Below, piece by piece: positions 3 through 60,425 of a stretch of DNA of 64,000 bases. Both the position numbers and the translations under genes were made by a program. The DNA is from Methylogaea oryzae. Its GTDB lineage: Bacteria > Pseudomonadota > Gammaproteobacteria > Methylococcales > Methylococcaceae. The DNA lies in NCBI RefSeq assembly GCF_019669985.1, contig NZ_AP019782.1, forward strand, positions 1,232,501 to 1,296,500. The letters run 5' to 3'. The notes under the pieces are model-generated. The model had not been told where the DNA came from, searched no databases, and saw nothing but the letters and a program-made list of their open reading frames with translations. The first letter of the stretch is position 1; each line of letters starts with the position of its first letter.

Positions 3-683
3 TGTTACAGCGAGGCTAACCGCCGCGCCGTGGCGGCGGTGCTGGACGAAGCCGGCGTGCCGCTGGTGGAGGACGATCCCTACCGCGACCTGGCCTACGG
101 GCCGGCGGAGCGGACGCCCATTTGCGCCTATTTGCGCCGCGCGCCCTGGGTGTATCTGGGCAGCTTCTCCAAAATCACCGCGCCGGGCCTGCGCATCGGC
201 TATCTGGCCGCCTCGCCCGCGTTGTTCCCCTGGCTGCTGCGACTGAAGCAGGCCAGCGATTTGCACAGCAACCGCATCAGCCAGGCTTGGCTGGCGCGCT
301 TTCTGGAAGGGGAGGCTTTCGAACGGCATTTGGCGAACCTGGCCGGCGTCTACGCCGAACGGCGCGACACCATGCAGGCGTCCTTGCAGCGCCATTTTTC
401 GGGGCTGGCCCAATGGCGTCTGCCCGACGGCGGCTTGTTCTTCTGGTTGCGGCTAAGCGGGGAATGCGACACCCTGGCCGCGCTGCAAATCGCCCTGGCG
501 AGCAACATCGCTTTCATGCCGGGAGATCCGTTCTTCCCCCTGGCGGAACAGCGCTACCCGGCGCTGCGGCTGAATTTCAGCCACGCGGCGCCGGCCGACA
601 TCGAGCGCGGCGTCGCGCGGCTGGCGCAAGTGCTCGGCGAGTGCATCGAGCCGGGCCGGTTAACGCCGGGCCTGGCGGCATGA
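3..683 (+). CDS. PLP-dependent aminotransferase, MocR-like C-terminal part (5' truncated)
   Basis: The reading frame is already open at the window edge, so this is the C-terminal part of a longer protein. The visible 226 residues are a fold-type I aminotransferase domain. The motif SFSKITAPGLRIGY holds the PLP-binding lysine (codon at 171-173), followed by a typical GGLFFWLRL segment and a small C-terminal domain ending in LRLNFSHA. The spacing matches the aminotransferase half of GntR/MocR regulators and also free 2-aminoadipate/kynurenine-type aminotransferases. The N-terminal wHTH half that would decide is outside the window. The next gene starts about 37 bp downstream on the same strand. 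Confidence 0.8.
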   Translation, partial: CYSEANRRAVAAVLDEAGVPLVEDDPYRDLAYGPAERTPICAYLRRAPWVYLGSFSKITAPGLRIGYLAASPALFPWLLRLKQASDLHSNRISQAWLARFLEGEAFERHLANLAGVYAERRDTMQASLQRHFSGLAQWRLPDGGLFFWLRLSGECDTLAALQIALASNIAFMPGDPFFPLAEQRYPALRLNFSHAAPADIERGVARLAQVLGECIEPGRLTPGLAA

Positions 684-720
684 ATCTTTCATATCGTTAT
701 CCATAAGGAGCGTGATTCCC

Positions 721-1371
721 ATGAGTTTGACCCTGGTCATCGGCAACAAAAACTACTCGTCCTGGTCCCTGCGGCCCTGGCTTTACCTGAAACACCACGG
801 CATCGCTTTCGAGGAAGTCCGTATCCCGCTGTATCGGGAGGATTCCAAAGCGAAAATCTTGGCCCGTTCGCCGTCCGGCAAAGTGCCGGCCCTACGCGAC
901 GGCGACATAGTCGTGTGGGATTCGTTGGCGATCCTGGAATATCTGGCCGAGCGCTTTCCGGCAACCCGCGGCTGGCCCGAGGACCTGGGCGACAGGGCCA
1001 CGGCCCGCAGCCTCGCGGCGGAAATGCACGCCGGCTTCCAGGCCCTGCGCAACGAATGCGGCATGAACTGCCGCCGCCCGCCGGCCGCCAAGGATTTATC
1101 CGAAGCCGCCCGCAAGGATGTCGCCCGCGTCAGCCAAATCTGGCGGGAATGCCGCGAGCGCTACGCCGGGGAAGGCCCCTGGCTGTTCGGCCGCTTCGGT
1201 ATCGTCGACGCCATGTATGCGCCGGTGGCCCTGCGTTTCCACACCTACCGGCTGGACGGCGGCCCGGCCGTGCAAGCCTATGTGGACCATGTGTTGGCAA
1301 ACCCCGCCATGGCCGAATGGACGGCCGCCGGCCGGCAGGAAAGCGAGACGATTGCGGCATTCGACGAGTGA
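721..1371 (+). CDS. glutathione S-transferase family protein
   Basis: A 216-residue soluble protein with the two-domain GST layout. The N-terminal thioredoxin-like half contains NYSSWSLRPW, which places a catalytic-type serine near the N-terminus, and the GSH-binding segment GKVPALRDGD followed by WDSLAILEYLAE. The C-terminal half is helical. It probably conjugates glutathione or handles small electrophiles in the cytoplasm; no specific substrate can be named. I chose ATG 721 over a GTG at 712 because the ribosome site AAGGAG (705-710) lies 10 bases before 721 and only 1 base before the GTG. Confidence 0.85.
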   Translation: MSLTLVIGNKNYSSWSLRPWLYLKHHGIAFEEVRIPLYREDSKAKILARSPSGKVPALRDGDIVVWDSLAILEYLAERFPATRGWPEDLGDRATARSLAAEMHAGFQALRNECGMNCRRPPAAKDLSEAARKDVARVSQIWRECRERYAGEGPWLFGRFGIVDAMYAPVALRFHTYRLDGGPAVQAYVDHVLANPAMAEWTAAGRQESETIAAFDE

Positions 1372-1412
1372 GCCGCGGGCGGCAAAAGTCTTGTAGGGCA
1401 GGCATTTCGCGT

Positions 1413-1444
1413 TATCGTTCCCACGCTGCAGCGTGGGAACGATA
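1413..1444. repeat. REP-like perfect palindrome
   Basis: A 32-base perfect inverted repeat with the core CGTTCCCACGCTG / CAGCGTGGGAACG. It sits between the convergent GST and P-type ATPase genes. A diverged copy (22 of 26 core bases) lies inside a coding sequence at 20235-20260, so this is a dispersed repeat family rather than only a terminator. It has no T-run on either side. Confidence 0.75.
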
Positions 1445-1462
1445 CAACCGTGTCCACCCAAC

Positions 1463-3565
1463 CTACGCTTGCCCTTCCTCCTCCTCTTCTTCCTGGTACT
1501 TCAGCAAGGGATGCATGGTGTTGACCAGGCCGGCGAGCATGCCGGCGTAGTAGCTGACGATGCCGGCCACCAGGCCGAACTGGGCGAAGAACACGCCGCC
1601 GATGCAGACCACGCCGGGGACGATGCTGCTCGCCAGGTTGATCTTCATGTTGTGTTCGAAGTCGTCGCCGATGTCGAACAGCCGGTTCAACTTGTTGAGC
1701 GTGCCGTCCATGAAGATGATCTGGGCCGTGTCGGTGGCGGCTGTGGAGGCGCCTTTCAGGGAAATGGAGACGTTGGCTTTTTTCAACGCGATGGAGTCGT
1801 TGATGCCGTCTCCCACGAAACAAACGAACCGTCCTTGCTGGCGCAGGCCTTCCACCAGGGCCGCCTTGTCGCCGGGCAGGGTTTGCGCGAAATAGTTGTC
1901 GATGCCCAGCGCTTCGGCCAAGTTGCGGGTAGGCTCCTCGTGGTCGCCGGAGATGATGTAGAGCTGCAGGTCGCGCTTTTTCAGTTCTTCGATGACCGCC
2001 TTGGCTTCGGGGCGGATGATGGGGCGAAGCTCGATGGCGCCGCTGTAGCGGTCGTCGACCGCCACGTGCACCAGGGAGTAGCCGCAGGCGTCGGCTTGGC
2101 TGCGGATCGCTTCCACTTCGTCCGGCATAGCGATGCCTTCGTTGGCGAGAAAGCGGGCGCTGCCGACCCGGATGAATTTTTCGCGCTTGCCGCCGTTCAG
2201 GCGCACCTTGATGCCGTAACCGACGCTGTAGGCGCCTTCGTCGATTTCCGGAAGCTCCAGCCGCCGCTCCTTGGCGGCGGCGGTAATGGCCAGCGCCACC
2301 GGATGGGGCTGGCGGTGTTCGGCGGTGGCGGCATGGGCCAGCAAGGCGTCTTCGCTCAGCCCGCCGAAGGGATAGAGCCGGCCGACTTCCAGTTGGTCCA
2401 GGGTCAGCGTGCCGGTTTTGTCGAACACGATGGTGTCCACGTTCTTCATGGACTCGAAGGCGCGGCCGTCCTTGATCAGCACGCCTTGGCGGGAAATGAC
2501 GTGCAGGTAATTCAATACGCTGAACGTTCCTAAAAACCGCATGTTGTAGCCCAGTCCGGAGAACAGGACGGTCAGCGCTTTTTCCGAACCCATGGTCGGC
2601 CAAGTCAGGGCCGCCAGCAACAGGGTGGGGGTGTTGAAGTCGTTGGCGATTTTCTGGCCGCGCGCCTTGAGGGTGTCTTTGTAGCTTTCGGTATGGTTGA
2701 GGATGTTGCCGATTTCCGCCGCCAGGGAGTCCTTGCCGGCCTTGGTCACTTCGATGAGCAGCTTGCCTGACAGCACGGCGGTGGCGGCAAACACCTGGTC
2801 CCCAACCCCTTTTTCCACCGGCTGGGCTTCGCCGGTGAGGATGTGCTGGTCGATGCTGGCCATGCCTTCCTTGATGACGCCGTCGACGGCGATGACTTCC
2901 CCGGCGTTGACCACCACGATGTCGCCTTTTTGCAGGCTTTCCAGCGGCGTTTCCACTTCGACGCCGTCCCGCGCCACCCACACCCGTCCCGGCTGTTTGC
3001 CGAACACGTTGATCAACTGCTTGCGGGAGTTGTCCTCCAGCCGGGTCAGCATTTTCATGGCGACGTTGCCCAGCAAGGCCATCATGGCCGCCACCACCAG
3101 GTGGTTGGTCGCCAACACGCCGCTGACGATGACGGCGTCGGTCACGTAAGTGGTGAGCTCCTTATTCTTCAGGTCTTCGTAGGCTTTGCGGTAGAGCGGA
3201 TAGGCCATGTACAGCACGCCCCCCACCCCGGCGATATGCAGCGCCGGAACGAAGGTGGCGCCCAGCAGGGCGGTGCCGGTGATGCCGGAGGACAGCAGGA
3301 TGTGCCGGTTGATTTTCTGGTCGAATTCGCTGACCGGCTGCTCGCCGTCCACGGAAATTTCCTGGATCTGGAGGTTGCGTTCCGATCCGCTCAGGGCCTC
3401 CACCACTTCCTTCAACAGCTTTTTGGTTTTTTTCAGGCCGTCGGCGGCGGGCTTGCCGCGATCGGGCTGCTGGGGCTTGGCCGTCGGCCACAGCTCGTTA
3501 GTGCCTTGGGTCTTTTTGTTGTAGCCGAAGGCCAGGCCGCTGAGTACTAAAAATTCCAGAATCAT
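1463..3565 (-). CDS. P-type ATPase, P1B-like, lacking the CPx motif and metal-binding N-domain
   Basis: A 700-residue membrane ATPase. The phosphorylation motif DKTGTLT has its aspartate at about residue 382, HPVAL marks the nucleotide domain as P1B (heavy-metal) type, and the hinge GDGINDS lies near 585. TGEAQPVEKG marks the actuator domain. Two hallmarks are missing. There is no N-terminal HMA (GMxCxxC) domain. The membrane helix before the phosphorylation domain, which normally carries CPC/CPx, reads FSGLGYNMRFLG (about 335-346). The C-terminus is a poly-Glu stretch. Starts at ATG 3565 with GGAG six bases upstream, only 12 bp after the NRPS stop, so it is almost certainly the last gene of that operon. 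The transported ion is unknown; metal or proton-linked roles tied to the NRPS product are inference. Confidence 0.85.
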   Translation of the reverse strand: MILEFLVLSGLAFGYNKKTQGTNELWPTAKPQQPDRGKPAADGLKKTKKLLKEVVEALSGSERNLQIQEISVDGEQPVSEFDQKINRHILLSSGITGTALLGATFVPALHIAGVGGVLYMAYPLYRKAYEDLKNKELTTYVTDAVIVSGVLATNHLVVAAMMALLGNVAMKMLTRLEDNSRKQLINVFGKQPGRVWVARDGVEVETPLESLQKGDIVVVNAGEVIAVDGVIKEGMASIDQHILTGEAQPVEKGVGDQVFAATAVLSGKLLIEVTKAGKDSLAAEIGNILNHTESYKDTLKARGQKIANDFNTPTLLLAALTWPTMGSEKALTVLFSGLGYNMRFLGTFSVLNYLHVISRQGVLIKDGRAFESMKNVDTIVFDKTGTLTLDQLEVGRLYPFGGLSEDALLAHAATAEHRQPHPVALAITAAAKERRLELPEIDEGAYSVGYGIKVRLNGGKREKFIRVGSARFLANEGIAMPDEVEAIRSQADACGYSLVHVAVDDRYSGAIELRPIIRPEAKAVIEELKKRDLQLYIISGDHEEPTRNLAEALGIDNYFAQTLPGDKAALVEGLRQQGRFVCFVGDGINDSIALKKANVSISLKGASTAATDTAQIIFMDGTLNKLNRLFDIGDDFEHNMKINLASSIVPGVVCIGGVFFAQFGLVAGIVSYYAGMLAGLVNTMHPLLKYQEEEEEEGQA

Positions 3566-3577
3566 GGGGGCTCCGGG

Positions 3578-6500
3578 TTAGGTCTGGGCGGCAAGCTGCC
3601 GGCCGAACAAAGCGCGATCGACCTGGGGGCAGACAATATCCGACCCTTGCAGTCCTCGCAGGGTATTGCGGCAGTCGATGCGGGCGGCATCCTGGGATGC
3701 GGGTCTTGCAAACACGTTGTCCTCCGGCAGGTTCGCCAGGTAAGGGTACAAAGGATTGTCGCGCGATTGGGCCAGCGCCTGTTTCCAGGCGGGGTAAGGC
3801 ACTTCCTCCAGGCGGTGGCCGTAGGATTGCGCCCATAGCAACAGCTCGCGCAGCGGGGTCGAGTGGGGATTGGACAAGTGGAAAGTCTGGCCGGCCAACT
3901 CGCGTTGCTTGGACAGGTGCACCAGCGCACGGCTGACGTAATCCACCGGCACTAGATTGTCGCACACGCCGGCAATCGGCGGCATCCTGCCGATTTGCAG
4001 GCAGCCCTGCAGCAACAGGGTCAGGAAGTCCTTGCCGTTGGACACCCCGGTCAGGCTGTGCCCGCACACCCGGGTGGGCCGGTAGACGTAGACCGGAATA
4101 CCCCGTTCCGCCGCGTTGCGCATCAGCTTTTCCGCCACCCATTTGGTCTGCGGATAGCCCTGGCCGGCCACTTGTTCCGGCGCCGGGAAGTCGGTTTCCT
4201 TCACCACCGGCGTCGCATCGTCGCCTTCCGTGGACAGGATGGACGAGACGTAATGCACCGGCTTGGTCTTGCCGCCGGCGACGGCCAGCCGCAGGATTTC
4301 CTTGGTTCCTGCCACGTTGGCGGCTTTCAGCGCCTCGTAGGGATAGACGTGGTTGACCAGGGCGCCGTTGTGGTAGATGCCGTCCAGTTGTTCGGCCAAT
4401 TGCCGGTATTGCTCCGGCGCCATGCCCAGCCCCGCTTGGGCCAGGTCGCCCGGAACGGCAATAATGCGTTGCGCGAAAGCCTCGTCCCAGATCCGGTGGG
4501 CTTGCAGCTGCTCGCGCAGCCGGCGGTTGCCTTCTGCGCCGTCGGCACAACGGACTAGGCAGTAGATGTCCGCCGAGGTTTGCCGCAACAGTTCGTGGAG
4601 CAGGAAAACGCCGAGAAAACCGGTGGCGCCGGTCAATAAAAGCTTTTCCGGCGCCGCCGGGCTCCACGGTGCGGTGGGGACGATGTCCGGTTCCAGCGTG
4701 GCTTCGCCGGCTAAATCCAGCGCGGGGCCTGTGCGCTCGCCGTGGGTGATGAGGCCGGCCATGGCGGCGACGGTGGGGGATTCGAACAGGCGGCGCAGGG
4801 AAACCTCGGTTTGGAAGACCTCGCGGATTTGATAGGTCAGTTCGGTCATCAGCAGCGAGTGGCCGCCCAGCTCGAAGAAGTCGTCGTGGATGCCGACCCG
4901 TTCCCGTCCGAGCAAGCTTTGCCACAGTTCGCACAGCCGTTCCTCGGCGGGGTTGCGCGGCGCCGTGTAGGCGGGCGCCGTATTGGCGTCGCCGCCCGAT
5001 TCGACCATGCCGGCCAGCGCGGCGCGATCCACCTTGCCGGCGCTGGTCAACGGCAGGGCGGGCAGGGTGACGAAGGAGGCCGGCACCATGTAATCCGGCA
5101 ACTGCCGCTTCAGCCACTCCCGCAGGTCTTCCGGCGGCTGGCCGGTGACGAAGGCCACCAATTGGCCGCCGTGGGGCGAGGGGATGACCGCCGCTTCCCG
5201 GATACCCTCGTGGCGGGCCAGCACGGTTTCGATTTCGCCCGGCTCGATGCGGAAACCGCGCAGCTTGATCTGGTGATCCATGCGGCCGAGGAATTCCAGT
5301 ATCAAGCCGTCGCCATCGGTCCTGACCCAGCGGGCCTGGTCGCCGGTTTTATACAGGCGCCGTCTCTGGCCGAAAACCTCCAGTTCGATAAAGCTCTGCT
5401 CCGTCAGCTCCGGCCGGTTGAGGTAGCCCCTGGCCAGCGCGCCGGAGATGCACAGCTCGCCGGGCACGCCGATGGGCACCGGCCTGTGGTTCCGGTCCAG
5501 GATGTGCGCGCCCACGTTGGCCAGGGGAGTGCCGATGGGGGCGCTGGCGGCGAAACGCTGTTGCCCCGTGTCGCCGTCGACTTGGAACACCGTGGCGGTG
5601 ATGACGCCCTCGGTTGGCCCATAGGCGTTCAGCACGGTGAGTTCCGGCCGGTGCGCCAGGCGTTCTGCCGTCCTTCGCGCCAGTCCGGCATCCAGCGCTT
5701 CGCCGCCCAGGATGAGCAGGCGCAGGGCGGGCGGCAGCTCTTCCGCTTTCTCCAACAACGTCAGCACCTGTTGCCAGTAAGCCGGCGGCAAGTCCGCCAC
5801 CGTCACCGCCCAGTGCCGCATGAATTGCAAGAAGCGTTGCGCGTCCAACACGTCGTGGGGCGGCAGCACCAGGGTGGCGCCGGCCAGCAGGGCGGCGGTG
5901 ATCTGCTCCAGGGCCACGTCGAAGGTAAAGGCGGCGAAATTGAGCACCCGATCTTGCGGCGTGACGCGGTAAATCCGTTGCGCGGCGTGCCAGTGCCCCG
6001 CCAGGGCGGCGTGCTCCACCGCCACGCCCTTGGGCCGGCCGGTGGATCCGGAGGTGTAGATGACGTAGGCCAGGCCGTCCGGGCGGCTGCGGTCGACGGG
6101 CTGGATGCCGTCGGGCATGGATTGCCACAGGGCATCCACCGGCACGGCTTTGGCGGCGGATGTCGGCAGCGCGTGCCAAGTCCCGCTTTGCGTCAATACC
6201 AGCTGGGTGCCGCACTCTTCCAGCAGCAGGGCGATGCGCGCCTGGGGGTGATGGGGATCGATGGGTAGGTAGGCGCCCCCCGCCTTGAGCACGCCCAGCA
6301 GGGCGGCCACCATGTCGGCGCCGCGTTCCATGCAGATGGCGACGATGTCGCCGGTTTGGACGCCGAGGTCGATCAGGCGGCCGGCCAGATGGTCGGCCCT
6401 GGCGGCCAGTTGTCGATAGCTAAGCTGGCCGGCGTCGGACAGCAGGGCGGGATGCTGCGGCGTTGCTCTCGCCTGCCGGTCGAACAGGCCGACGACGGTC

Positions 6501-9500
6501 GGCTGGCCGGGGAATTCCTCGCGCGCTTCGCCCAGCGCCCGTAGCCGCTGCGCTTCTTCCTGGGGCAGGATGGGGAATTGGTGCGGACAGCGGGCCGGGT
6601 CGGCAGCGATGGCTTCCAGCAACAGGGCGAAATGCTCCGCCATGGCTAGCACGGTTTCGGCCTGGAACAGGTCGCTGCAATATTCCCAATGGCAGTGCAG
6701 CCCGTCGGCGCGCTCCACCACGTCCAGGGTCAAATCGTATTTGGCGATGGGGTATTGGTGGGGCAGGAAAGACACGTTTAGCTCCGCCAGCTCCAGGGCC
6801 TCCATGGGGGCGTTCTGCAGCGAGAACATCACCTGGAACAGCGGGCTGTAACTCAAGCTGCGCTGGGGTTTCAGTCGCTCCACCAGGTACTCGAAAGGAA
6901 TGTCCTGGTGGGCGTAGGCTTCCAGGGCGGTGCGGCGCACGGCGCTTAACAGGTCGATAAAATCGGCCGATGGGTCGATGCGGGTGCGCAGGACGAGGGT
7001 GTTGACGAACAGGCCGACGATGTCTTCCGTGCGGCTGTGGGTGCGGTTGGCGATGGGGCTGCCCACCAGGATGTCGTCGCAGCCGCTGTAGCGGTACAGC
7101 AACACGTCGAAGGCGGCGAGCAGCACCATGTAAAGAGTGGCGCTGTGCTCCCGGCCCAGTTGCTCCAGGCGCTGGCCGACTGCCGGCGGCACCACGCGCT
7201 TGAGGCGGGCACCGTTGTAGCTCATCAGCGCCGGGCGCGGCGCGTCCGTCGGCAGGTGCAGCAGGGCGGGGGCGCCGGCCAGCTTGGTTTCCCAGTAATG
7301 CAGTTGCCGCTCCAGGAACTCGCCTTGTAGCCAACCGCGCTGCCAGGCGGCGTAGTCGGTGTATTGCACGCCCGGATCGGCCAGCCGCGGCGGGCGGCCC
7401 TCCACCTGGCTGTCGTACAGCTCGCGCCATTCCCGCAGGAAGATGCCCATGGACCAGCCGTCGCTGACGATGTGGTGCAGGTTCAGCAACAGCACGTGGC
7501 TGGTCTCGCCCAGCTTGACCAGGCGCAGGTCGATGAGCGGTCCCGCCGCCAGGTCGAAGGGAAACAGCGCGTGCTCGGCAATCAGCCGGTTCAATTCTTT
7601 TTGCCGGTCGGCCTCGGGCAAGCCGCTCAAGTCGGTAACCGCCAGCGGCACGTCCCCGTCGCGCACCCGCAGCGCCGGCCGGCCGTCGATTTCCGGAAAA
7701 CACAGCCGCAGGCTGACGTGCCGTTGTATCAATGTTGCCAGCGCCGTTTGCAGGGCGGGACGGTTCAGGTTTCCTTCCAGGCGCAAGGCGGCCGGGATGT
7801 TGTAGGTGGTGCTTTGCCCGTCCAGCTTGGCCAGGAACCACAGCCGGCGCTGGGCGAAAGACAGCACCGGCTCCTCGCCGTCCGCCAAGGGCAACAGCGG
7901 CGGCAGCTCCGGCGCGCCTTGTTGGCGCCGCAGCCAAGCGGCCAAATCCTTCAGCACCGGGTATTCGAAAATGGCCTTCACCGGCACTTCCACGCCGAAG
8001 CTGTCGCGCAGCCGCGAAGCGAGCTGGGTCGCCACCAGGGAGTGGCCGCCGGCACGGAAAAAATCGCTGTGGACGTTGTCGATGGGCAGGCCGAGCACTT
8101 GGCTCCACAGGCTGCACAGCAGCATTTCGGTTTCGTCCCCGGGCGGCGCCGCCTGCGCCGGGCCGCTAGCGGCGGCGATATGCGGTTCCGGCAGGGCGGC
8201 CTTGTCCACCTTGCCGTTGGGCGTCAGGGGCAGTTGGTCCAAGGCGATGAAGTCGGCGGGGATCATGTAGTCCGGCAGCCAGGCCTTGAGCCAAGCGCGC
8301 AGCTCGTCGGTAGCGATGGACGGCGTGACATAAGCCACTAGGCGCTTTTCCCCGCGCTTGTCGTAGAGCAGCACCACCGCTTCGTCCACCGCCCCGTGTT
8401 GCGCCAGCGCGGCCTCGATTTCGCCCAGCTCGATGCGAAAGCCGCGCAGTTTCACTTGCTGGTCGATGCGGCCGAGGAACTCGACGGTCAAATCCCCGGT
8501 GGAATCATTTAGGCAGCGCAATCTCGCCAGGTCGCCGCTCTTGTAAACCCGCTCGCGGCGGCCGAACAGCTCTACTTCGCAAAACTTTTCCGCGGTCAGC
8601 TCCGGCCGGTTCAAATAGCCCCGCGCCAGGCCGGTTCCGGCGATGCACAGTTCGCCGGGAACGCCGATGGGGAGCGGGTTGTCGCGTCCGTCCAGGATGA
8701 CGATGCGGGTATTGGCGATGGGCGCGCCGATGGCCGGGAACTCGGGGTCGGCCGGCCGCTTCGGCAGCACCGGCGTGGCGGAGGTGACGATGCTGCATTC
8801 GGTGGGGCCGTACAGGTTGTGCAGCTTGAAATTGGCCGTCTGCGGCGGATAGCGGTGCAGACGGTCGCCGCCGGTGAACAGTCGGGTCAGCGATCGGCTG
8901 CGCCAGCCGTCGCTCAGCAGGCTTTCCGCGATGGGGGTGGGCAGGCCGGCCAGGGTGATGCCATGGTCGTCGAGCCAGGCTTTCAAGTCGTCACTGGATG
9001 CCAGCAGGCCGGGTTCGGCGACGTACAGCGCCGCGCCGCTGCAAAGGCAGGGCCACAGGTCCAGCATGATGGCGTCGAAAGCCACGTTGACCGCTTGCAG
9101 GCAGCGGTCCGTGTCCCGGACGCCGAAATAGGCCATGCACCACGCCGTGGTGTTGGCCAAGCCGCGATGCTCGACGACCACGCCCTTGGGCTGCCCGGTG
9201 GAGCCGGAGGTATAGATGATGTAGGCCGCATCCGACGGCCGGGTGGTTCTGGCCGGGTTGGCGTCGTCGGCGGGCGCGGTGGCAACGTCTGCTTCCAGGC
9301 AAAGGGTCTCGACGGCCGGCAGGCTGGCGCAGCGTTGCAGGAGGGGGGCGCCGGTCAGCAGCAGGGCGGCGCGGCTGTCCTCCAGCACGAACGCCAGCCG
9401 GGCGCTGGGGTAATTGGGGTCCATGGGCAGGTGCACGCCGCCCGCCTTGTGGATCGCCAGGATGGCGGCGAGCATTTCCAGAGAGCTTTCCAGGCACACC

Positions 9501-11244
9501 GCCACCACGGTTTCCGCCGTGACGCCCCGTTCCAGCAGTCGGCGCGCCAGGCGATTGGCCTGCCGGTTGAGCTCCCGGTAGCTTGTCGCCACGCCCCGGC
9601 ACACCAGGGCGGTGCGGTCGGGGCAGCGCGCCGCCCGATCCTCGAATTGGTCGATGACCGACCATTCCGGCGCATCGGCCGCTGCGCGGCGGTTCCAGGC
9701 CTGGATCCGCGCGGCTTCCTCGGGCGGCAACAGCGGCAGGTCGTCGATGCAGCGGCCGGGGTCTTGCAGGATGGCTTGCAACAGCGTTTCGTAGCGGCGG
9801 GCCATGCGTTCCACGGTAGCGCCGTCGAACAGGTCGGCGGCATATTCCCAGGTGCACAGCAGGCCGTCTTTTTGCTCCATCAGCAATAGGCCCAGGTCGA
9901 ACTTGGAGTAGGGCACGATGGTCCGGTCTGGCAAAGGCTCGACTCGCAGCTGGGGCAACTGGAGTTGCTCCATGGGCTCGTTCAACAGGGAAAAAGTCAC
10001 CTGGAACAGCGGCGCATAGGCCAGGCTGCGCTCCGGGTTGAGCCGCTCCACCAGGGTTTCGAAGGGCAGTTCCTGGTGGTCGTAGGCGCCGATGGCGGTT
10101 TGCCGGACTTGCTGCAGCAGATCCAGGAAGCTTTGCTCTTCCCCCAACACCGTCCGCATCACCAGGGTATTGACGAAAAAGCCGATCAAGCCGTGGGTTT
10201 GCGGCTGGGTGCGGTTGGCGATGGGGACGCCCACTACGATGTCGCGCTGGCCGCTGTAGCGGGCCAGCAGCAGGTAGAAAGCGGCCAGCAACGTCATGAA
10301 CAAGGTGCAGCCCTGTTGCCGGCTCAAGGCACGCAGTTGTTGCGCCGCGTCCGGGGCTAGCCGCGTTTGGAAATGGCCGCCCCGGTAGCTCATGACGGGC
10401 GGACGCGGGCGGTCGGTCGGCAAGGCCAGCAATTCCGGCGCGCCGTCCAGTTGGCCGCGCCAGTAATCCAGCAGGGCGTCCAGCGTTGCGCCGCTGAGCC
10501 GCCGCCGCTGCCAGGCCGCGTAGTCGCCGTAGTGGATGGACAGCGGCGCCAGGGCGGGCGTTTCATCGCGACTGTAGGCGGTGTAGAGCTGCGACAGTTC
10601 CTGGTACATGAGGCTCATGGACCAGCCGTCGGAGATGATGTGGTGCATGGCGAACAGCAGCGCGTGCCGGTCGTTGCCCAGCACCAGCAATCGCGCCTGG
10701 AACAAGGGTCCCGTAGCCAGATCGAAACGGAAGTGGGACAGGGATTCTACGTGCCGGTCCAGCGCCTGCCGCTGGGTCGCGCCGCTCAGGTGGCTCAGGT
10801 CGTCGATCTGCAGCGGCGCGTAGGCCTCCAGCAGCCTCACTGCGGCTTTGCCTTCCACCTCCGGGAAGCACATGCGCAGGCTGTGATGGCGTCGCACCAA
10901 GTCGGCCAGCGCGTTTTCCAGTGCCTTGGCGTTGAGCGCGCCGGCCGCGACGTAGCAGGCGAACACGTTGTAGACCGGGCTGTCCCGTTCCATCCCGGCG
11001 AGAAACCACAGGCGCTGCTGGGCGTAGGAGATGGGGATGTCCGCGCCTTCCGGCAGCGGCGCTATGGGTTCAGGCCCGCCGGCTTGGGCCAAGGCGGCGA
11101 TGACTTCTTGCTTGCGGGTCGCCAGTTCTTGCCGCAAGTCGGCCGTCAAGGCGTCCTTGGGCGCGCGGAAGCGCAGGCCGTCGCCTTCCAGCCACAGCCG
11201 AATGTCCTTTGCTTCCAGCTGGGCCAGAAAATCCCGCAGCGGTT

Positions 11245-11248
<4 letters not shown>
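3578..11248 (-). CDS. non-ribosomal peptide synthetase: docking-C-A-PCP-C-A-PCP-thioester reductase
   Basis: A 2556-residue NRPS adding the last two residues and releasing the product. Domains: TubC-like N-terminal docking region (1-55); C1 (70-500, HHIISDG near 202); A1 (about 545-1035); PCP1 (GGHSL, Ser1070); C2 (about 1125-1560, HHIVSDG); A2 (about 1595-2075); PCP2 (Ser2131); thioester-reductase domain (about 2195-2545) with the NAD(P)H motif GATGFLG and YPQTK catalytic pair. There is no thioesterase, so release should be reductive, to an aldehyde or alcohol. Pocket residues read by eye against GrsA PheA: A1 D-A-L-G-F-G-L-I-V-K (no confident substrate); A2 D-V-E-D-I-G-A-I-T-K, whose two acidic residues suggest a basic side chain (Lys/Orn). 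No epimerase or methyltransferase domain. Its ATG overlaps the stop of the upstream NRPS-PKS gene (ATGA), so the two are translationally coupled and the docking region probably pairs with that protein's C-terminal tail. Confidence 0.93.
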
Positions 11249-20039
<8,791 letters not shown>

Positions 20040-20043
<4 letters not shown>

Positions 20044-21083
20044 CCGTTCATTTCCTTTTTCGGCGCGCCGTACGCGGCGGACGGCCCCACCGGCGGTTCG
20101 AGCCGCGTGGCTGGCGTGTCGCGGCTGTCCGTTGCCTGTTGGTAGTTTGCCTTAGCTTGTGCCGGAGAGATATAGCCGCTGGGTTCGGCTAGTCGCTGCG
20201 AGCCAGGGTTTGGCGGTTGGCGCGCCTCGAGCGGCGTTCCCTCGCTGCAACGCGGGAGCGACGACATGGCGATATTTTTTTGCAGCCGGCAGGCGATCAC
20301 CCGATGCCGGGCGTAGGCGCCGTGCGGCAGCTCTCCGGGCGGGGCGATTTCCCACCACCAGGAGAGATAGGCCAGCCGGTCCAGGCGGAAATGCGTCGCC
20401 AGATCGGTGCGTTCCAGCGTGGCGCCGGCGCGGTCGTGGGTGACTTGTTCCGCGTCGGCGACGAGGCAGGCGGAGCAGGGAAAGGCGGCGAGGTAATCCA
20501 GGTGCCTTTGCATCAACGCCAGGGCGAAGGTGTTGACGGCGGCATCGCTCAAGCGTGGCCGGTGTTGCAGCAGCCACTGGCTGGGCGCCAGAGGCAGTTG
20601 CGACAGCAGGTTGACGGAAGCGACGAAGTCGATACCGGCGTCGTCTAGAAACCGCTGCGGCGACCGCTGGCCCAGTTCGGCGAGGTCGGTTTCGCCGGCC
20701 TGTTTCGGCAAGGCCAAGACGGCGTCGGCGCATTCGGTCAGGTCGTGTTCGATCAACCGCACATTGCCGTAGCGGCGGGCCTGGCGCCTGGCCGCGGCCG
20801 GATGCAGCGCGTCCACCAGCAGCACCTGGTCGAAGCGCCCGGCCAATTCCGCCAGGGGCACGTCCAGCAAGTGGCCGCTGCCCAGGATCAGCGCCGTGCG
20901 GCGCCGCTCCAGCCGGTCCGTCGCTGCTAGCAGGGCATCGCGGGTGTGTCGCAAATGGGGCTGCCAGGCGGCGCGGCAGCGCCGGTGGCGGGCGGCGATG
21001 GCGACGGCCTCGCGCAAATAGCCCAACCGTCGCAGGGCCGGCCGGCAAGGCGTGGCGAAATAGGCCCACAGCTCCGCCAGCAT
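20040..21083 (-). CDS. SAM-methyltransferase-like protein with a repeat-derived C-terminal tail
   Basis: A 347-residue protein. ALILGSGHLLDVPLAELA resembles motif I of class I SAM-dependent methyltransferases, followed by an acidic strand end (LLVDALHP) and an IEHDLT segment like motif II. Substrate unknown. The last 75 or so residues (from about 271) look unlike the rest. They are Pro/Ser/Ala-rich and begin where a REP-like palindrome (20235-20260) is translated, suggesting that an insertion extended the reading frame. I start it at ATG 21083, nine bases after the rubredoxin stop, because a start at 21170 would overlap the whole rubredoxin C-terminus. The stop overlaps the NRPS-PKS GTG start. 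Position suggests a tailoring or housekeeping role next to the NRPS, but this is inference. Confidence 0.65.
20235..20260. repeat. REP-like imperfect palindrome within a coding sequence
   Basis: CGTTCCCTCGCTGCA followed by an imperfect complementary arm. It matches the 1413-1444 palindrome core at 22 of 26 positions. It is translated as part of the C-terminal tail of the methyltransferase-like gene. Confidence 0.65.
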
Positions 21084-21091
21084 GCGTGCGC

Positions 21092-21265
21092 TTAGTCTTC
21101 CATCAAATCGAACATGTCCTTGTCCACGCCGCAATCGGGGCAGGACCAGTCGTCGGGAACGTCCTCCCAACGGGTGCCTGGAGCGATGCCGGAATCCGGG
21201 TCGCCGACGGCTTCGTCGTAAACGTATTGGCAGGCGGCGCAGACGTATTTGCGGTACGGAGGCAT
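21092..21265 (-). CDS. rubredoxin
   Basis: A 57-residue open frame. Translation begins [18 protein letters not shown] and carries two Cys pairs, C9-x2-C12 and C42-x2-C45 (CPDCG). That is the classical [Fe(SCys)4] rubredoxin spacing, with the conserved [11 protein letters not shown] and WEDVPDDW segments between. It is a small soluble one-electron carrier, and its length is typical. It lies 8 bp upstream of the methyltransferase-like gene on the same strand and may head the NRPS operon. Whether it supplies electrons to a tailoring enzyme or is simply a neighbour cannot be told. Confidence 0.93.
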
Positions 21266-22265: not shown

Positions 22266-22379
22266 CCCGGAAGGCCGCTCCCCGCATCAATCAATCTTCC
22301 TGAATTGATTGGCGAAAGCGCTGTCGATGTCGGCAGGCCGGTGCTAGTCTGCCCGCCGTATCGCGCAACAGGAGTAGCC

Positions 22380-22991
22380 ATGGACGTGAGTCCTCCGCAA
22401 ACCGCCGACCCGGTCCGGGCCCGGTTGCTCAAGGCGGCCTTGGAATGTTTTCTGGCCGACGACTACCACCGGGTCACCACCCGCCGCATCGCCGCCATGG
22501 CCGGGGCCAACGTGTCCATGATCCGCTACTACTTCGGCAGCAAGGAAGGCCTGTACGAGGAGGCGATCCGCGACACTTTGCAGCCGCTGCTGGAGGCGCT
22601 GGACGGCCCGTTGCTGTCGTCGCCGGAAGGGTTCGCCGATTTCCTGAACCTTTACTACCGGACCATGTGCCAGCGGCCGGAATTTCCCAAGCTGATTCTG
22701 AAAGTGCTGGCGCTGAAGCAGGGGCCGGGGCGGCGCTTCATCCACCAGTTGCTGGAGCGGGGCCGCGCGCGGGGCGCCAGGAAGGTCGCCGAGCTGCAAG
22801 CCGCCGGACAAGCGGCGGCATCGCTGGACCCTGACATGGTGAGGCTGGTTTTCGTCAGCCTGGCCATGACGCCGATGCTGCTGAAAGAGGTGTTCGAGGA
22901 GCAAATGGCGCGTCCGCTAGACGCTCGGTTTTTCGACGATCTGGCCCGCTTCAACGGCCGGTTGATCGCCGCCGGGCTGGCGCCGGCCTGA
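22380..22991 (+). CDS. TetR/AcrR family transcriptional regulator
   Basis: A 203-residue protein. The N-terminal helix-turn-helix is typical of TetR: TTRRIAAMAGANVSMIRYYFGSKEGLYEEA, about residues 32-65. The C-terminal helical ligand domain has no assignable ligand. Start ATG 22380 has AGGAG about 6-10 bases upstream. It precedes a methyltransferase gene by 13 bp on the same strand and is likely its operon partner and possible regulator. Confidence 0.88.
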   Translation: MDVSPPQTADPVRARLLKAALECFLADDYHRVTTRRIAAMAGANVSMIRYYFGSKEGLYEEAIRDTLQPLLEALDGPLLSSPEGFADFLNLYYRTMCQRPEFPKLILKVLALKQGPGRRFIHQLLERGRARGARKVAELQAAGQAAASLDPDMVRLVFVSLAMTPMLLKEVFEEQMARPLDARFFDDLARFNGRLIAAGLAPA

Positions 22992-23004
22992 GAGGGGAGG
23001 AGTT

Positions 23005-24120
23005 ATGGCTTTGCAAAAAAACGCCTTGGCCGTGCGAGGGTTTGCCCTGGCGATGCGATTCGCCGGCTGGCTGCAAAACCTGCCCAACCGGCTCACGCCG
23101 CCGCCGTTTCGCCTGGTGCAGATCGGCTCGGCCTTTTGGCAATCGCGGGCGCTGTATGTGGCGGCCCGGCTGGATATCGCCACCGTACTGGCCGACGGTC
23201 AGCGGCCGGTGGAGGACATCGCCGCCCGCGTCGGCGCGCAAGCCGACGCCCTTTACCGGCTATTGCGCATGCTGGCGGCCCTGGGCATTTTCCGGGAGGC
23301 CGCGCCCCGCGTGTTCGCCAACAACCGCCTTTCCGCGCCCTTGCGGGAGGACGCCCCGGACAGCGTGCGGGCGATGATCCTCATGCACAACTCGCCGGCC
23401 ATGAGCCGGCCCTGGTTCGAGCAACTGGAGTCCTGCGTCAGGGACGGCGGCGTGCCTTTCCGCCGCGTCCATGGGCAGGATTTGTACGACTACATGGACG
23501 ACCACGCCGAATTCGACGCCTTGTTTTCGCGGGCCATGGACAGCGTGGAGGCCTTGAGCGGCGACAGTTTCGCCCAGGACTTCGACTGGAGCCGTTTCCA
23601 ACGGGTCATCGACGTGGGCGGCTCCATGGGGAGCAAGTCCATCGCCATCCTGCGGCGACACCCCCGGGTGCGGGCCGTGGTGGTGGATCGCGCCCAGGTC
23701 GTCGGCGCGGCGGCGGGGCACTGGCAGGGGCGGCAGCCCCCGGAGCTGCTGGCCCGCCTGAGTTTCCAAGCCGGCGACGTGCTGGAAACACTGCCGCCGG
23801 CCGGCAGCGGCCGGGACATCTATTTGCTGAGCGCCGTGCTGCACGGGTTCGACGACGACGCTTGCGTCAAAGGCTTGCGCAACGTCGCCGCCGCCTGCGG
23901 TTCAAGCGGCGCCCGCATCGCCCTGTTGGAGCTGGTTTTGGCCGAAACCGCCGCGGATTTCGTCGGCGCTGCCTTCGACATGCAAATGTTCATGGGGACG
24001 CAGGGCAGGGAGCGGACGTTGACGGACTGGCGGCGGTTGTTCGAACGTGCCGGTTTGGTATTGGAGGAACAAGTGGAACTGCGCTCGTTCGCCCGGCTAT
24101 TGCTGCTGCGCTTGGGATAG
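23005..24120 (+). CDS. SAM-dependent O-methyltransferase (acetylserotonin OMT-like)
   Basis: A 371-residue protein with the bacterial/plant O-methyltransferase layout. An N-terminal winged-helix dimerisation region (LDIATVLADGQRPVEDIAARVG, then LYRLLRMLAALGIF) is followed by a SAM-binding core with VIDVGGSMGSKSIAIL near residue 205 and the late motif LLSAVLHGFDDDACV. The catalytic-type His of family 2 OMTs is plausibly the H in VLHGF. Substrate unknown. It starts after GGGGAGGAG, 13 bp behind the TetR gene. Confidence 0.88.
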   Translation: MALQKNALAVRGFALAMRFAGWLQNLPNRLTPPPFRLVQIGSAFWQSRALYVAARLDIATVLADGQRPVEDIAARVGAQADALYRLLRMLAALGIFREAAPRVFANNRLSAPLREDAPDSVRAMILMHNSPAMSRPWFEQLESCVRDGGVPFRRVHGQDLYDYMDDHAEFDALFSRAMDSVEALSGDSFAQDFDWSRFQRVIDVGGSMGSKSIAILRRHPRVRAVVVDRAQVVGAAAGHWQGRQPPELLARLSFQAGDVLETLPPAGSGRDIYLLSAVLHGFDDDACVKGLRNVAAACGSSGARIALLELVLAETAADFVGAAFDMQMFMGTQGRERTLTDWRRLFERAGLVLEEQVELRSFARLLLLRLG

Positions 24121-40192: not shown

Positions 40193-41443
40193 TCAGTCCC
40201 GGTATCTGCCCAGCACCAGGACGGCGTTGGTGCCGCCGAAGCCCAGGCTGTTGCTCATGGCCACATCCACCGCCGTATCGGCCGTTTCCCGCACGATGGG
40301 GAGGCCTTCGAAAGCCGGGTCCAGCGTCTCGATATTGATGGAAGGGGCGAGGAAGCCGTGCTCCAGCATGCCGATGCAGTAAATGGCTTCCTGCGCGCCG
40401 GAGGCGCCGATGGCGTGGCCGGTCATGGATTTGGTGGAGGAGAAGGGCGGCACCTGCTCGCCGAACACCTTGCGGATGCCGTTCACCTCCGCCAGATCTC
40501 CTTGTTGCGTGGCGGTGCCGTGGGTATTGATGTAGCCGATGTCGGCCGGGGCCAGCTTGGCGCTTTCCAGGGCGGCGGATATGCAGGCCGCGGTTTGCAG
40601 TCCCTCGGTTTCCGGAAAAATCATGGTGCCGCCTTCGGAGTTGGCGCCGAACCCCAAGATTTCGGCATAAATTTTCGCGCCCCGGGCCTGGGCCCGCTGC
40701 AATTCTTCCAGAATCACGATGCCGCCGCCGCCGCTGATGACGAAACCGTCGCGGTTCTGGTCGTAGGGCCGCGACGCCTTTTCCGGCGTGTCGTTGTATT
40801 GGCTGGATAATGCCATGCGCATGGCGGCAAAGGCCCCGGCGATGAGTTCGTTCAATTCCTCGGCGCCGCCCGCCAAGCTTAAATCCATAACCCCGTCGCG
40901 AATCAATTCGTAAGCGTGGCCGATATTATGGGTCGAGGTGGCGCAGGCCGAGCTGATGGAATAACTGCGTCCCTTGACGCCGAATATATTCGCCAAGGAC
41001 GCGCTACAGGAGCTGGACATGGCGTGGCACACGGTATAAGGATTCACCCGCTTCACCTGGTTGCGGTATACCTTTTCCGCGCCTTGATAAATCGCCGTCA
41101 AGCCGCCCACGCCGCTGCCGACGATGCAGCCGGTGCGGGGCGATTGCAGGTCCGCCTCGGTCAGGCCAGCGTCGTCCACCGCGTCCTTGGCGGCCAAAAC
41201 GCTGAAAACGGCGCCGTCCGAGGCATAGGCCAGCTGGCTTTTTTTGATGCCGCTGCTTGCGATCTTTCCCGCGACGTCGCCCAGGTTGCCGGCGACCGTG
41301 CTGGGGAATCCCAGTTCCCGCCATTGCGGCATGGCGCAAAGGCCGGAATTCCCCTGTTTAAGATTGGCGACTACCTCCGCATAACCGTGGCCGATACTGG
41401 AAACAATCCCTACGCCGGTGACTACGACGCGCCGTTGTCTCAT
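40193..41443 (-). CDS. beta-ketoacyl-[ACP] synthase (FabB/FabF-like)
   Basis: 416 residues, a full condensing enzyme. Its catalytic triad is Cys167 in SSACATST, His in NTHGTATQQGD, and His in KSMTGHAIGASG. It condenses acyl-ACP with malonyl-ACP. The preceding ACP gene overlaps it (ATGA), so the two form a dedicated pair separate from any visible fab cluster. Either fatty-acid elongation (FabB type) or a specialised product such as an aryl-polyene-like lipid is possible; no partner reductases or dehydratases are nearby. Confidence 0.88.
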   Translation of the reverse strand: MRQRRVVVTGVGIVSSIGHGYAEVVANLKQGNSGLCAMPQWRELGFPSTVAGNLGDVAGKIASSGIKKSQLAYASDGAVFSVLAAKDAVDDAGLTEADLQSPRTGCIVGSGVGGLTAIYQGAEKVYRNQVKRVNPYTVCHAMSSSCSASLANIFGVKGRSYSISSACATSTHNIGHAYELIRDGVMDLSLAGGAEELNELIAGAFAAMRMALSSQYNDTPEKASRPYDQNRDGFVISGGGGIVILEELQRAQARGAKIYAEILGFGANSEGGTMIFPETEGLQTAACISAALESAKLAPADIGYINTHGTATQQGDLAEVNGIRKVFGEQVPPFSSTKSMTGHAIGASGAQEAIYCIGMLEHGFLAPSINIETLDPAFEGLPIVRETADTAVDVAMSNSLGFGGTNAVLVLGRYRD

Positions 41444-41694
41444 GATTTCGCCGCGAGGCCGGACTCGATCAAGGCGACCACGTCGCCGACGGTTTGCAAT
41501 CCGAGCAGCTGTTTGTCTTCGACCACGATGTCGTAGTGTTCTTCTAGGTCCATAATCGCGGTGAGGCTGCCGACGGAGTCCAAATCGAGGTCGTCCTTCA
41601 ACGACAAATTTTCCGTTACCTCTTCTGGCTTAAGCTTTAAATCGCCGGCATTGATAATATATTCGGCAACTTTAGCCAGTATTTCTTCTTTCAT
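41440..41694 (-). CDS. acyl carrier protein
   Basis: 84 residues, with the phosphopantetheine site as LDLDSVGSL (Ser40). The usual DSL is DSV here, a variant seen in specialised ACPs. The protein is strongly acidic and helical. Its stop overlaps the KS start, so the KS probably acts on this carrier. It also differs from the aminoacyl/ketide carriers of the NRPS genes, whose sites are GGHSL/GGDSL. Confidence 0.9.
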   Translation of the reverse strand: MKEEILAKVAEYIINAGDLKLKPEEVTENLSLKDDLDLDSVGSLTAIMDLEEHYDIVVEDKQLLGLQTVGDVVALIESGLAAKS

Positions 41695-41906
41695 TGATAT
41701 CCCAGGTGGTTTCGTGTCGACTCTAAAGGCACCGCGCGGGCGCGCGTATGGGATATTTTCTCAAAAAAAAGCGCCGCTGCGTTTGTTGTCGCGAAATTGT
41801 CATGAAATAAAAGGCGCGGGACGGCCGGCAGGGGAAGCCGGCGGTTCGCCGCCATGCCGCGCTTGTCGGCGGGCCGATTGTTCCCTATAATCCTCCGCTC
41901 CATCAA

Positions 41907-41982
<76 letters not shown>

Positions 41983-42243
41983 GAATTTCCGATTCGCAAT
42001 CAAGAAGTTGGCATACGCTCTGGCCTGCCGGCTTTCTTTCTCGGCGGCGCAACTGCCGGCCTTTCCGGCTAAGCGCCGCATTCGCGTCGTCCGCTTCGAT
42101 CAAGCTGTCCGCTAAGCCGGACGCCCGTGGATATTTTCCGCCGGCCGTTCGTTATCCGCGCCCGCCCGCCGCGCCGAAGTCCCGGTTCCTCGCGCCATCC
42201 GTTTTCCGCTGATCGATATCCGCCGGCGCCGCTTGCCTGGCCG

Positions 42244-43488: not shown

Positions 43489-43560
43489 GCGTCGTACCTC
43501 GCGTGATGGGGGCGATATTGTCGATGAGCGGTTTTCCCGACTTCGTCGGTCTATCCGCGT

Positions 43561-44574: not shown

Positions 44575-44626
44575 ATAAACGACCTCGTAGCGTTTTGTTC
44601 GAGCGGATCGATAGCCTGGCGGCAGG

Positions 44627-45220
44627 CTATGTCGACGGAGCCTGTATGCCTTCGACTCGGGCCCCGAATCGTTTCAGCACCGAGGCCATATATTGTCGGT
44701 AATCTTCGTCAATCAACCCGCCGTCTTCGCGCCAGGCGTCGACGGCATGAACGATGGACAGCTGTTCCGGCCCGACCCAACAGCCCAGGTAGGCGAATAG
44801 ATTGCGCGTGCTTTGCAGCCCCAGCATGCCCCCGCTCCAGCCGCTGGTGGCGCAGCCCAGCAATAACGGCTTACCGAAAAACGGATTGGAGCACTCTGCG
44901 GCGCCGGGGATATGCGGCAAACGAGATACCCAATCGACCGTGTTTTTTAGATAGGGCGTGAACGAACCGTTGTATTCCGGCGTCAGTACGACGAAACCAT
45001 CCGCCAAGCAAAAGCGCCTATAGAGCGCTTTCACCGGGCGCAACGCGTCGTCGTCGGTTTCCAGGTCTTGGTTGAACAACGGGATTTCGACCAGCCTCGG
45101 ATCGAGAAAATCCACGTCGAAATCGGGTTTCAGCAACTCGCCTACATTCTCCGCCAAGCGGCGGTTGTAAGAGTGCCGCCGTTGGCTGCCCGGCATGATA
45201 AGGATGCGTTTCGATGCCAT
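44627..45220 (-). CDS. NADPH-dependent FMN reductase family protein
   Basis: 197 residues with a flavodoxin-like fold. The N-terminal phosphate loop is ILIMPGSQRRHSYNRRLA; LTPEYNGSFTPYLKNTVDWVSR is the family signature; CATSGWSGGMLGL is a later flavin contact. It reduces FMN or quinone-like substrates with NAD(P)H. It starts 7 bp after the WD40 gene stop, so the two are co-transcribed. In this cluster it could supply reduced flavin or reducing power to another enzyme. Confidence 0.9.
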   Translation of the reverse strand: MASKRILIMPGSQRRHSYNRRLAENVGELLKPDFDVDFLDPRLVEIPLFNQDLETDDDALRPVKALYRRFCLADGFVVLTPEYNGSFTPYLKNTVDWVSRLPHIPGAAECSNPFFGKPLLLGCATSGWSGGMLGLQSTRNLFAYLGCWVGPEQLSIVHAVDAWREDGGLIDEDYRQYMASVLKRFGARVEGIQAPST

Positions 45221-45227
45221 GGTCGCG

Positions 45228-56354: not shown

Positions 56355-56488
56355 AGCCTTGCGAAAAGGCGTCCCGCAGAATCTTTTCTCGTCTTCTTTC
56401 AGCGTCCCGGCGGCGCGAGTTCCCTATAAGGCATGAATCCAAGCATGGCGATTGTTCCGTGTGCAGCGAAAACGGCGAAGGTGTGGGC

Positions 56489-60302: not shown

Positions 60303-60425
60303 GTCGGTTTATCGCGGCAGAGCATGAAGGGGCGACGCGGCGGCGGGAAGCGCGTCGAGGGATGGACTAAAATTCGCGCAAGCGGCTAGGCGCTGTCTTA
60401 TTCACTATTGTCGATTAAATATCCC

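What the first reader, a model, noticed from the sequence alone, without database searches (positions are those of the whole stretch)
3578..20043. NRPS-PKS assembly line predicted to make a statine-containing peptide aldehyde or alcohol
Domains seen: A-PCP-C-A-PCP-KS-KR-ACP then docking-C-A-PCP-C-A-PCP-reductase. By colinearity (established for such enzymes) the KS/KR module would extend an aminoacyl chain by two carbons and reduce it to a gamma-amino-beta-hydroxy (statine-type) unit. The terminal reductase would release an aldehyde or alcohol. The last A domain has two acidic pocket residues (inference: Lys/Orn-like residue), which could give a leupeptin-like aldehyde or a cyclic imine. Statine and peptidyl aldehyde are both protease-inhibitor features; having both in one product would be unusual. 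I do not recognise this architecture as a known pathway.
Basis: partly seen in the sequence, partly recalled or inferred. Interest (0 to 1): 0.85.

Follow-up and report, generated by a model that had tools for sequence, protein, structure and literature searches.

The report
Peptide assembly line with unusual pump
A bacterium that probably lives on methane carries two giant enzymes that should build a small modified peptide ending in a reduced basic amino acid, and next to them sits a membrane pump of an uncharacterised kind that turns up beside such enzymes in several unrelated bacteria, which hints at a new sort of exporter for natural products.

Summary
NRPS1 (11245-20043, minus) is A-PCP-C-A-PCP-KS-KR-ACP; NRPS2 (3578-11248, minus) is TubC docking-C-A-PCP-C-A-PCP-reductase; the catalytic motifs searched for are present.

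(1) The PKS module has no acyltransferase. Its KS falls in a clade where 13 of 16 modules have a cis AT, and both AT-flanking linkers remain with the AT cut out. Malonyl must come in trans; the genome has three AT genes outside modular PKS frames.

(2) Twelve bp downstream lies a P1B-like P-type ATPase without the CPx metal motif. Its closest relative found (58%) also follows an NRPS ending in a reductase, whose last A-domain pocket agrees in 8 of 9 positions read. Of 74 CPx-less relatives 19 have NRPS/PKS domains within 8.5 kb, against 0 of 20 CPx ATPases (p=0.006, relatedness not corrected).

Predicted product: aa1-(statine-type unit from aa2)-aa3-basic residue, released reductively, alcohol slightly favoured over aldehyde. 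The assembly line is a new member of a known kind. The recurrent NRPS/PKS-ATPase pairing is the new part; that the ATPase exports the product is my preferred, untested reading.

The parts
11245..20043 (-). NRPS1: A1-PCP-C-A2-PCP-KS-KR-ACP, 2932 aa
18445..19926 (-). A1, pocket DAFCLAGVC (hydrophobic or aromatic, inferred)
15244..16716 (-). A2, pocket DALFAGAVV (hydrophobic or aromatic, inferred)
13750..14871 (-). KS of the clade of KSs that follow NRPS modules, 61-63% identical to KSs of cis-AT modules
13009..13350 (-). AT scar: KS-AT linker joined to post-AT linker, no AT domain (limits approximate)
11785..12981 (-). KR with its structural half, catalytic Ser/Tyr/Asn motif present
11329..11586 (-). 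ACP (limits approximate), followed by an acidic C-terminal tail
3578..11248 (-). NRPS2: docking-C-A3-PCP-C-A4-PCP-TD, 2556 aa
11084..11233 (-). TubC_N N-terminal docking domain
8189..9676 (-). A3, pocket DALGFGLIV (no firm substrate)
5009..6496 (-). A4, pocket DVEDIGAIT with two acidic residues (Lys-type favoured, inferred)
3581..4663 (-). Terminal thioester reductase (TD), closest solved relative MxaA
1463..3565 (-). P1B-like P-type ATPase without CPx motif, 700 aa, 12 bp downstream of NRPS2

Best explanation
The two NRPS-PKS genes and the P-type ATPase gene form one operon. NRPS1 loads aa1, condenses it with aa2, and its AT-less KS-KR-ACP module adds two carbons from malonyl delivered in trans (FabD or the other stand-alone ATs) and reduces the ketone, giving a statine-type unit. 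The chain passes by docking domain to NRPS2, which adds aa3 and a basic residue (Lys favoured). The terminal reductase releases the pseudo-tetrapeptide as a primary alcohol (slightly favoured) or as an aldehyde that could close to a cyclic hemiaminal or imine. The ATPase, from a family without the metal-binding CPx motif but with the P-type catalytic motifs, most likely exports the product or protects the producer from it. Shown by sequence: genes, domains, motifs, AT absence, CPx absence, recurrent linkage. Inferred: operon, substrates, malonyl source, reduction state, product, cargo of the ATPase.
For: Domains and motifs. AT absent while both flanking linkers are kept; the 13 KSs most similar to it all have an AT about 145-155 residues downstream, and the clade of 16 is supported 100/99. 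Four ATs in the genome: 608020, two tandem at 2239124-2240898, one inside a 1838-residue frame at 1767846. FabD in trans is documented for the AT-less barnesin line (PMC13096860, abstract and passages). TD closest to MxaA. The ATPase starts 12 bp after NRPS2; its best relative (58%) starts 177 bp after another NRPS-TD gene, whose last A pocket agrees in 8 of 9 residues. 5 of 9 PF07993 places in 15 ATPase-bearing genomes lie 1.5-3.3 kb from a CPx-less ATPase (chance 3e-10, or 8e-6 for 3 of 7 without the window and G446). 19 of 74 against 0 of 20 for NRPS/PKS domains within 8.5 kb.
Against: 55 of 74 CPx-less ATPases have no such domain within 8.5 kb; 3 of 15 ATPase-bearing genomes (G277, G529, G560) have no C domain at E<=1e-15. 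Single-domain tests are not significant (p 0.06-0.23; TD alone 0.135). The control is small and the linked loci are partly close relatives. No other exporter was sought systematically. Both A-domain substrates and TD outcome are predictions. The TDs at G000:1987691 and G176:C321 have no such ATPase near. G442/G446 pockets read by eye look Pro-like, not basic, so the ATPase is not tied to a basic end in general.
Confidence: 0.55

Rival explanations
1. Same assembly line, but two-electron release: the product is a Lys/Arg-type peptide aldehyde or its cyclic imine, a leupeptin-like protease inhibitor that also holds a statine.
For: A4 pocket with two acidic residues; R domains are known to give aldehydes and imines too (PMC8949500, passages).
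Against: The TD is much nearer to MxaA (1e-88) than to the aureusimine reductase (1.9e-8), though closeness does not fix the number of electrons.
Confidence: 0.4
2. The ATPase moves a metal or a metal-peptide complex: the product is a metallophore and the pump part of metal handling.
For: TIGR01525 heavy-metal model passed (373.5 bits, cut-off 346.25); closest solved structures are copper and zinc/cadmium ATPases; a heavy-metal P-type ATPase is noted in the lusichelin metallophore cluster (PMC12210259 section 7); the host is probably a copper-needing methanotroph.
Against: No CPx in any P0004 hit typed; no N-terminal CxxC by the pattern used in 74 of 74, against 16 of 20 controls with it. No typical chelating domain or TonB receptor was seen in the annotated genes around, but not all ORFs were scanned.
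Confidence: 0.15
3. The ATPase is a bystander: a membrane protein of another role that often lies in accessory islands, so that it meets NRPS/PKS genes without working with them.
For: Most members have no NRPS/PKS nearby (55 of 74); the direct neighbours are mixed and include helicase, transposase and rRNA methyltransferase genes.
Against: TD adjacency needs 3 changes on the tree, 0 of 500 shuffles as low; gaps to the TD gene of -4, 5, 12 and 177 bp on the same strand in four loci; chance figures.
Confidence: 0.25
4. The PKS module is dead or skipped after losing its AT, and the line makes a tetrapeptide without statine.
For: The AT is gone relative to its nearest KS relatives.
Against: KS, KR and ACP motifs are present and the 2932-aa frame is open; trans malonyl sources exist in the genome and in precedent.
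Confidence: 0.12

Closest known systems
Barnesin A line (brnE, brnF), Sulfurospirillum barnesii (PMC13096860)
   Same: NRPS-PKS hybrid with an AT-less PKS module that extends an amino acid by two carbons; FabD serves in trans
   Different: Barnesin is a lipodipeptide with a KS-DH-KR-ACP-TE end and a vinylogous arginine; here KS-KR only, in the middle of the line, and a reductase at the end
Myxochelin synthetase MxcG and myxalamid MxaA reductase
   Same: C-A-PCP-TD end module aligns end to end with the MxcG model; TD closest in the PDB to MxaA
   Different: Whole-protein MxcG score 1295 bits against a cut-off of 2300, so not MxcG; no DHB-siderophore genes were looked for
FK228/thailandepsin/spiruchostatin and detoxin-type lines (recalled; detoxin named)
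   Same: AT-less PKS module after an NRPS module giving a beta-hydroxy-gamma-amino unit (recalled)
   Different: Those end otherwise than in a reductase (recalled); no sequence compared here
   Same: TD gene followed on the same strand by the sister ATPase (58%); last A pocket 8 of 9 residues the same
   Different: No PKS domain found; an A domain with nested methyltransferase, then C-A-PCP-C-A-PCP-TD; TD 40% and last A domain 42% identical
P1B metal ATPases (CopA, ZntA)
   Same: TIGR01525 over cut-off, P-type catalytic motifs
   Different: CPx replaced, no N-terminal CxxC; separate side of the tree, support 100

Membership tests
AT-less NRPS-PKS hybrid served in trans | KS and ACP with catalytic motifs, no AT in the module | tested here: met
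AT-less NRPS-PKS hybrid served in trans | A malonyl transferase outside the module is present in the genome | tested here: met
   ATs at 608020 and 2239124-2240898; that any of them loads this ACP was not tested
Canonical trans-AT PKS lineage | KS groups with KSs of AT-less modules | tested here: not met
   KS lies in a clade of 16 with 13 cis-AT KSs; two other AT-less KSs are in the clade on long branches
Reductively released nonribosomal peptides | C-terminal TD of the thioester reductase family with NADPH and YxxxK motifs | tested here: met
Peptide aldehydes (leupeptin type) | Two-electron release | not testable with these tools
   needs biochemistry; sequence leans to MxaA
Statine-containing peptides | NRPS module followed by KS-KR-ACP without DH, competent KR | tested here: met
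   product not shown
P1B metal-transporting ATPases | TIGR01525 score over cut-off | tested here: met
   373.5 bits against 346.25
P1B metal-transporting ATPases | CPx-type metal motif in the membrane domain | tested here: not met
P1B metal-transporting ATPases | N-terminal metal-binding domain (usual, not universal; recalled) | tested here: not met
   no HMA domain among Pfam hits; no CxxC pattern

The most novel reading that the evidence does not exclude
CPx-less P1B-like ATPases are a branch of P-type ATPases re-purposed to pump nonribosomal peptides, polyketides and other amino-acid-derived metabolites, recruited several times by NRPS and PKS clusters and, in the window and its closest relative, matched to peptides with a reductively released basic end.
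Probability: 0.35. Interest if true: 0.85.

Novelty: new variant of a known kind. Interest (0 to 1): 0.6.

Why it matters
If the ATPase moves the product, P-type ATPases gain a new class of cargo (assembled secondary metabolites), and the gene becomes a marker for mining reductase-terminated peptides and for finding their self-protection. The window and L045 are a ready pair in which the last A pocket and the pump are both alike while the rest differs, so the link can be tested. The AT scar is a clean case of a cis-AT-type module that must depend on a malonyl source in trans, in a genome that also holds a large AT-less PKS region with two ATs beside it. A peptide with a statine and a reduced basic end would also be a candidate protease inhibitor.

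Tried and rejected
Full-length relatives of the KS-KR-ACP part: 11 of 61 related genomes (own included) have a match at E<=1e-100, and apart from the own copy the longest is 42% over residues 2-1060 in G026. One genome-contig scan gave 4 loci; only L016 was scanned with Pfam (C-A-KS-AT-MT-KR-DH-ER-ACP-TE), the other three were only used for their KS. The gene upstream of NRPS1 (20040-21170) matched no Pfam, NCBIfam or PADLOC model and was left out of the mechanism. A defence reading of the ATPase: no PADLOC hit. Paper searches gave no paper, 48 one irrelevant one (listing seen); one gave 9, 66 gave 19, 67 gave 53 (15 listed), 73 gave 42 (12 listed); of these, passages were read in PMC8949500, PMC12783407, PMC11964084, PMC11085572, PMC12210259 (also its section 7) and PMC13096860 (also its abstract); all others were seen as listings only.

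Biases. The 24 loci of the KS tree were fetched mostly because of KS similarity or as parts of the own genome. The 74 CPx-less ATPases were chosen by a DKTGT motif and absence of a CPx pattern, and the 20 controls by its presence, so those two features are by construction; independent of that, no P0004 hit typed has CPx. One search uses the window plus 66 stretches; only 40 stretches were taken, mostly the top of its list, and for G026 and G029 I knew that a KS lay on the same contig nearby. Fourteen further CPx-less places (pieces of 2-7 kb) are but not; two of the 48 'noCPx' rows look like KdpB (L122, L123; recalled motif). Linked loci that are near relatives (L068/L069, L164/L167, L169/L171) make the p-values optimistic. 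For one search, 50 neighbours were listed after 16 loci were skipped as duplicates or known cases, and one more (L171:5851-8193) was dropped, leaving 49; 25 of 64 families are shown; there is no control. Pocket codes have nine read residues; the script appended the tenth letter K without reading it.

Full report
Check of the observation. The two ORFs are at the stated coordinates on the minus strand and overlap by 4 bases. Pfam and NCBIfam confirm A-PCP-C-A-PCP-KS-KR-ACP for NRPS1 and TubC_N-C-A-PCP-C-A-PCP-reductase for NRPS2. A motif script found the KS Cys and two His motifs, the KR motif, HHxxxDG in three of three C domains, the carrier serine motif in five of five carriers, and the Rossmann and YxxxK motifs of the reductase. 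Both frames are open throughout. NRPS1 ends in an acidic tail and NRPS2 begins with a TubC_N docking domain, as expected for a hand-off (sequence; the docking role is general knowledge).

The module lacks an AT. Pfam finds KS and KS-linker models up to residue 2231 and KR from 2355, about 120 residues apart. In an alignment with six modules that have an AT, the window keeps the KS-AT linker and the post-AT linker, while some 300 residues of AT are missing. Among 49 KSs of 24 loci the 13 most similar to the window's (49.9-63.3% identity) all have an AT about 145-155 residues downstream; the other 35 are at 33.7-48.5%, 5 of them with an AT and the rest without one or cut off. In the tree the window sits in a clade of 16 (ultrafast bootstrap 100, SH-aLRT 99; bootstrap not fully settled) with those 13 and two other AT-less KSs on long branches, one of them in the large AT-less PKS region of the same genome. 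The likeliest history is in-frame loss of a cis AT. The genome has four AT places: 608020 (taken for FabD, not checked), two tandem ones at 2239124-2240898 in frames of 703 and 342 residues next to the large PKS region, and one inside a 1838-residue frame at 1767846. FabD serving an AT-less NRPS-PKS is reported for barnesin A, whose authors also cite pseudotetraivprolide and detoxins (PMC13096860, abstract and passages).

Predicted product. Pocket residues by script, GrsA numbering recalled, nine read: A1 DAFCLAGVC, A2 DALFAGAVV, A3 DALGFGLIV, A4 DVEDIGAIT. A1 to A3 have no firm call. The reductase is closest in the PDB to MxaA of myxalamid (1e-88), then to an entry named type I polyketide synthase (8v1x, 4.7e-74), then to carboxylic acid reductases (1e-29); the aureusimine reductase is at 1.9e-8. 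R domains may give aldehydes, alcohols or imines (PMC8949500, passages). I put alcohol slightly ahead.

The ATPase. The next gene, 12 bp downstream on the same strand, encodes a 700-aa P-type ATPase that passes the heavy-metal ATPase model (373.5 bits, cut-off 346.25) but lacks the CPx motif. Genomes with relatives, own genome included where it was in the set: 8 of 321 of the class (E<=1e-90), 6 of 398 of the phylum (E<=1e-110), 3 of 4 of the order of G176, 3 of 48 of the class of G442, all three already, and 49 of 301 of the own order. The one other genome of the own genus has only a 41% relative (G001). No relative typed has CPx. In the aligned column set, CPC of 20 of 20 controls stands against mostly F/L, G, and Y/S/T in the 74; the N-terminal CxxC pattern is found in 0 of 74 (first 200 residues) and 16 of 20 (first 300); HP and GDGxND motifs are in 74 of 74. 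The 74 and the 20 separate with support 100 in a quick tree without bootstrap.

Linkage to assembly lines. The best relative (58%, G176) starts 177 bp after an NRPS gene with three A, two C, an A-nested methyltransferase and a TD. That line's last A pocket, DAEDIGAIT, differs from the window's at one of nine read residues although the A domains are 42% identical. Two genomes of one genus in another class (G442, G446) have an A-PCP-TD gene directly upstream of a more distant member; G529 has an A-TD protein two genes upstream. In 15 genomes that carry the ATPase, 5 of 9 PF07993 places lie 1.5-3.3 kb from a CPx-less ATPase, measured to its DKTGT motif. With each genome's ATPase count the chance is 3e-10, and 8e-6 for 3 of 7 after dropping the window's TD and G446. 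TD linkage needs three changes on the ATPase tree, so it seems to have arisen more than once. More widely, 19 of 74 CPx-less ATPases have an A, C, KS or TD domain within 8.5 kb against 0 of 20 CPx ATPases, one-sided Fisher p=0.0059; single-domain comparisons are not significant (0.06 to 0.23). A coarser test gave 9 of 48 against 0 of 18 near a C domain (p=0.045) and 6 of 48 against 0 of 18 near a TD (p=0.135). Against: 55 of 74 show no such domain nearby, three of 15 genomes have no C domain at all, and TDs at G000:1987691 and G176:C321 have no such ATPase near. Of 49 direct neighbours without megasynthase size, three are EgtD-like methyltransferases, three sulfotransferases, and single ones a carbamoyltransferase, a PLP decarboxylase, a saccharopine dehydrogenase, but also a helicase, an rRNA methyltransferase and a transposase (no control).

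Reading. I take the operon to make and expel a statine-containing, reductively released pseudo-tetrapeptide with a basic end. Shown are gene content, domain integrity, AT absence, motif loss in the ATPase and a recurrent linkage. Substrates, malonyl source, reduction state, export role and cotranscription are inferred. The host carries two copies of a PF02461 gene (AMO/pMMO subunit A family), so it is probably a methanotroph; its species was not established.

Known or new. AT-less NRPS-PKS modules, statine units and reductive release are each known, so the assembly line is a new member of a known kind in a combination I have not seen. A P-type ATPase in an NRPS-PKS cluster is mentioned in the lusichelin paper as 'heavy metal translocating', related by its authors to siderophore export/import (PMC12210259 section 7); whether that one has CPx is not stated there. 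Searches showed no paper whose listing describes a CPx-less ATPase family tied to NRPS/PKS clusters; most subscription journals are outside the library.

Noticed in passing
L045 (G176:C294) 123-10586 +, 10764-12755 +: NRPS with A(nested methyltransferase)-C-A-C-A-TD; by eye the second pocket looks Pro-like and the third is basic, so an N-methyl-aa-Pro-basic aldehyde or alcohol, thrombin-inhibitor-like, could be made (pocket meaning recalled).
   Followed up: partly
L164, L167, L169, L171: CPx-less ATPases lie 0.6-4.9 kb from KS domains of large AT-less-looking PKS genes in four genomes of the own order, transcribed in the opposite direction.
   Followed up: partly
G277 contigs C3 and C4 (L046-L048, L093-L095): A genome without any C domain hit holds several CPx-less ATPases, one after a saccharopine-dehydrogenase-like gene; the cargo there is open.
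   Followed up: no
own genome C1:1740111-1776039 (L023, L024) and 1985000-2004000 (L025): Two more NRPS or NRPS-PKS regions; the first also holds KSs without a cis AT downstream, the second a second NRPS-TD with no CPx-less ATPase nearby.
   Followed up: partly
window 20040-21170 -: 376-aa ORF overlapping the NRPS1 start, no Pfam, NCBIfam or PADLOC match; the middle resembles a Rossmann/SAM-binding protein by eye, the C-terminal third looks low in complexity.
   Followed up: no
window 22305-24120 +: TetR regulator and O-methyltransferase (Methyltransf_2) genes pointing away from the NRPS operon; could belong to the cluster.
   Followed up: no
window 40193-46904 -: A stand-alone KS, an ATP-grasp with L-amino-acid-ligase C-terminal domain, an FGE-sulfatase-like protein and a WD40 protein near a tRNA-Thr: perhaps another small biosynthetic group.
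   Followed up: no
window 56459-58078 +: NAD_binding_4 reductase fused to an SCP2 sterol-carrier domain; counted among the nine PF07993 places though not an NRPS TD.
   Followed up: no
window 60408-63236 +: PAS-GGDEF-EAL protein with an ethylene-receptor-like N-terminal domain (ETR1_N, 5.8e-31).
   Followed up: no
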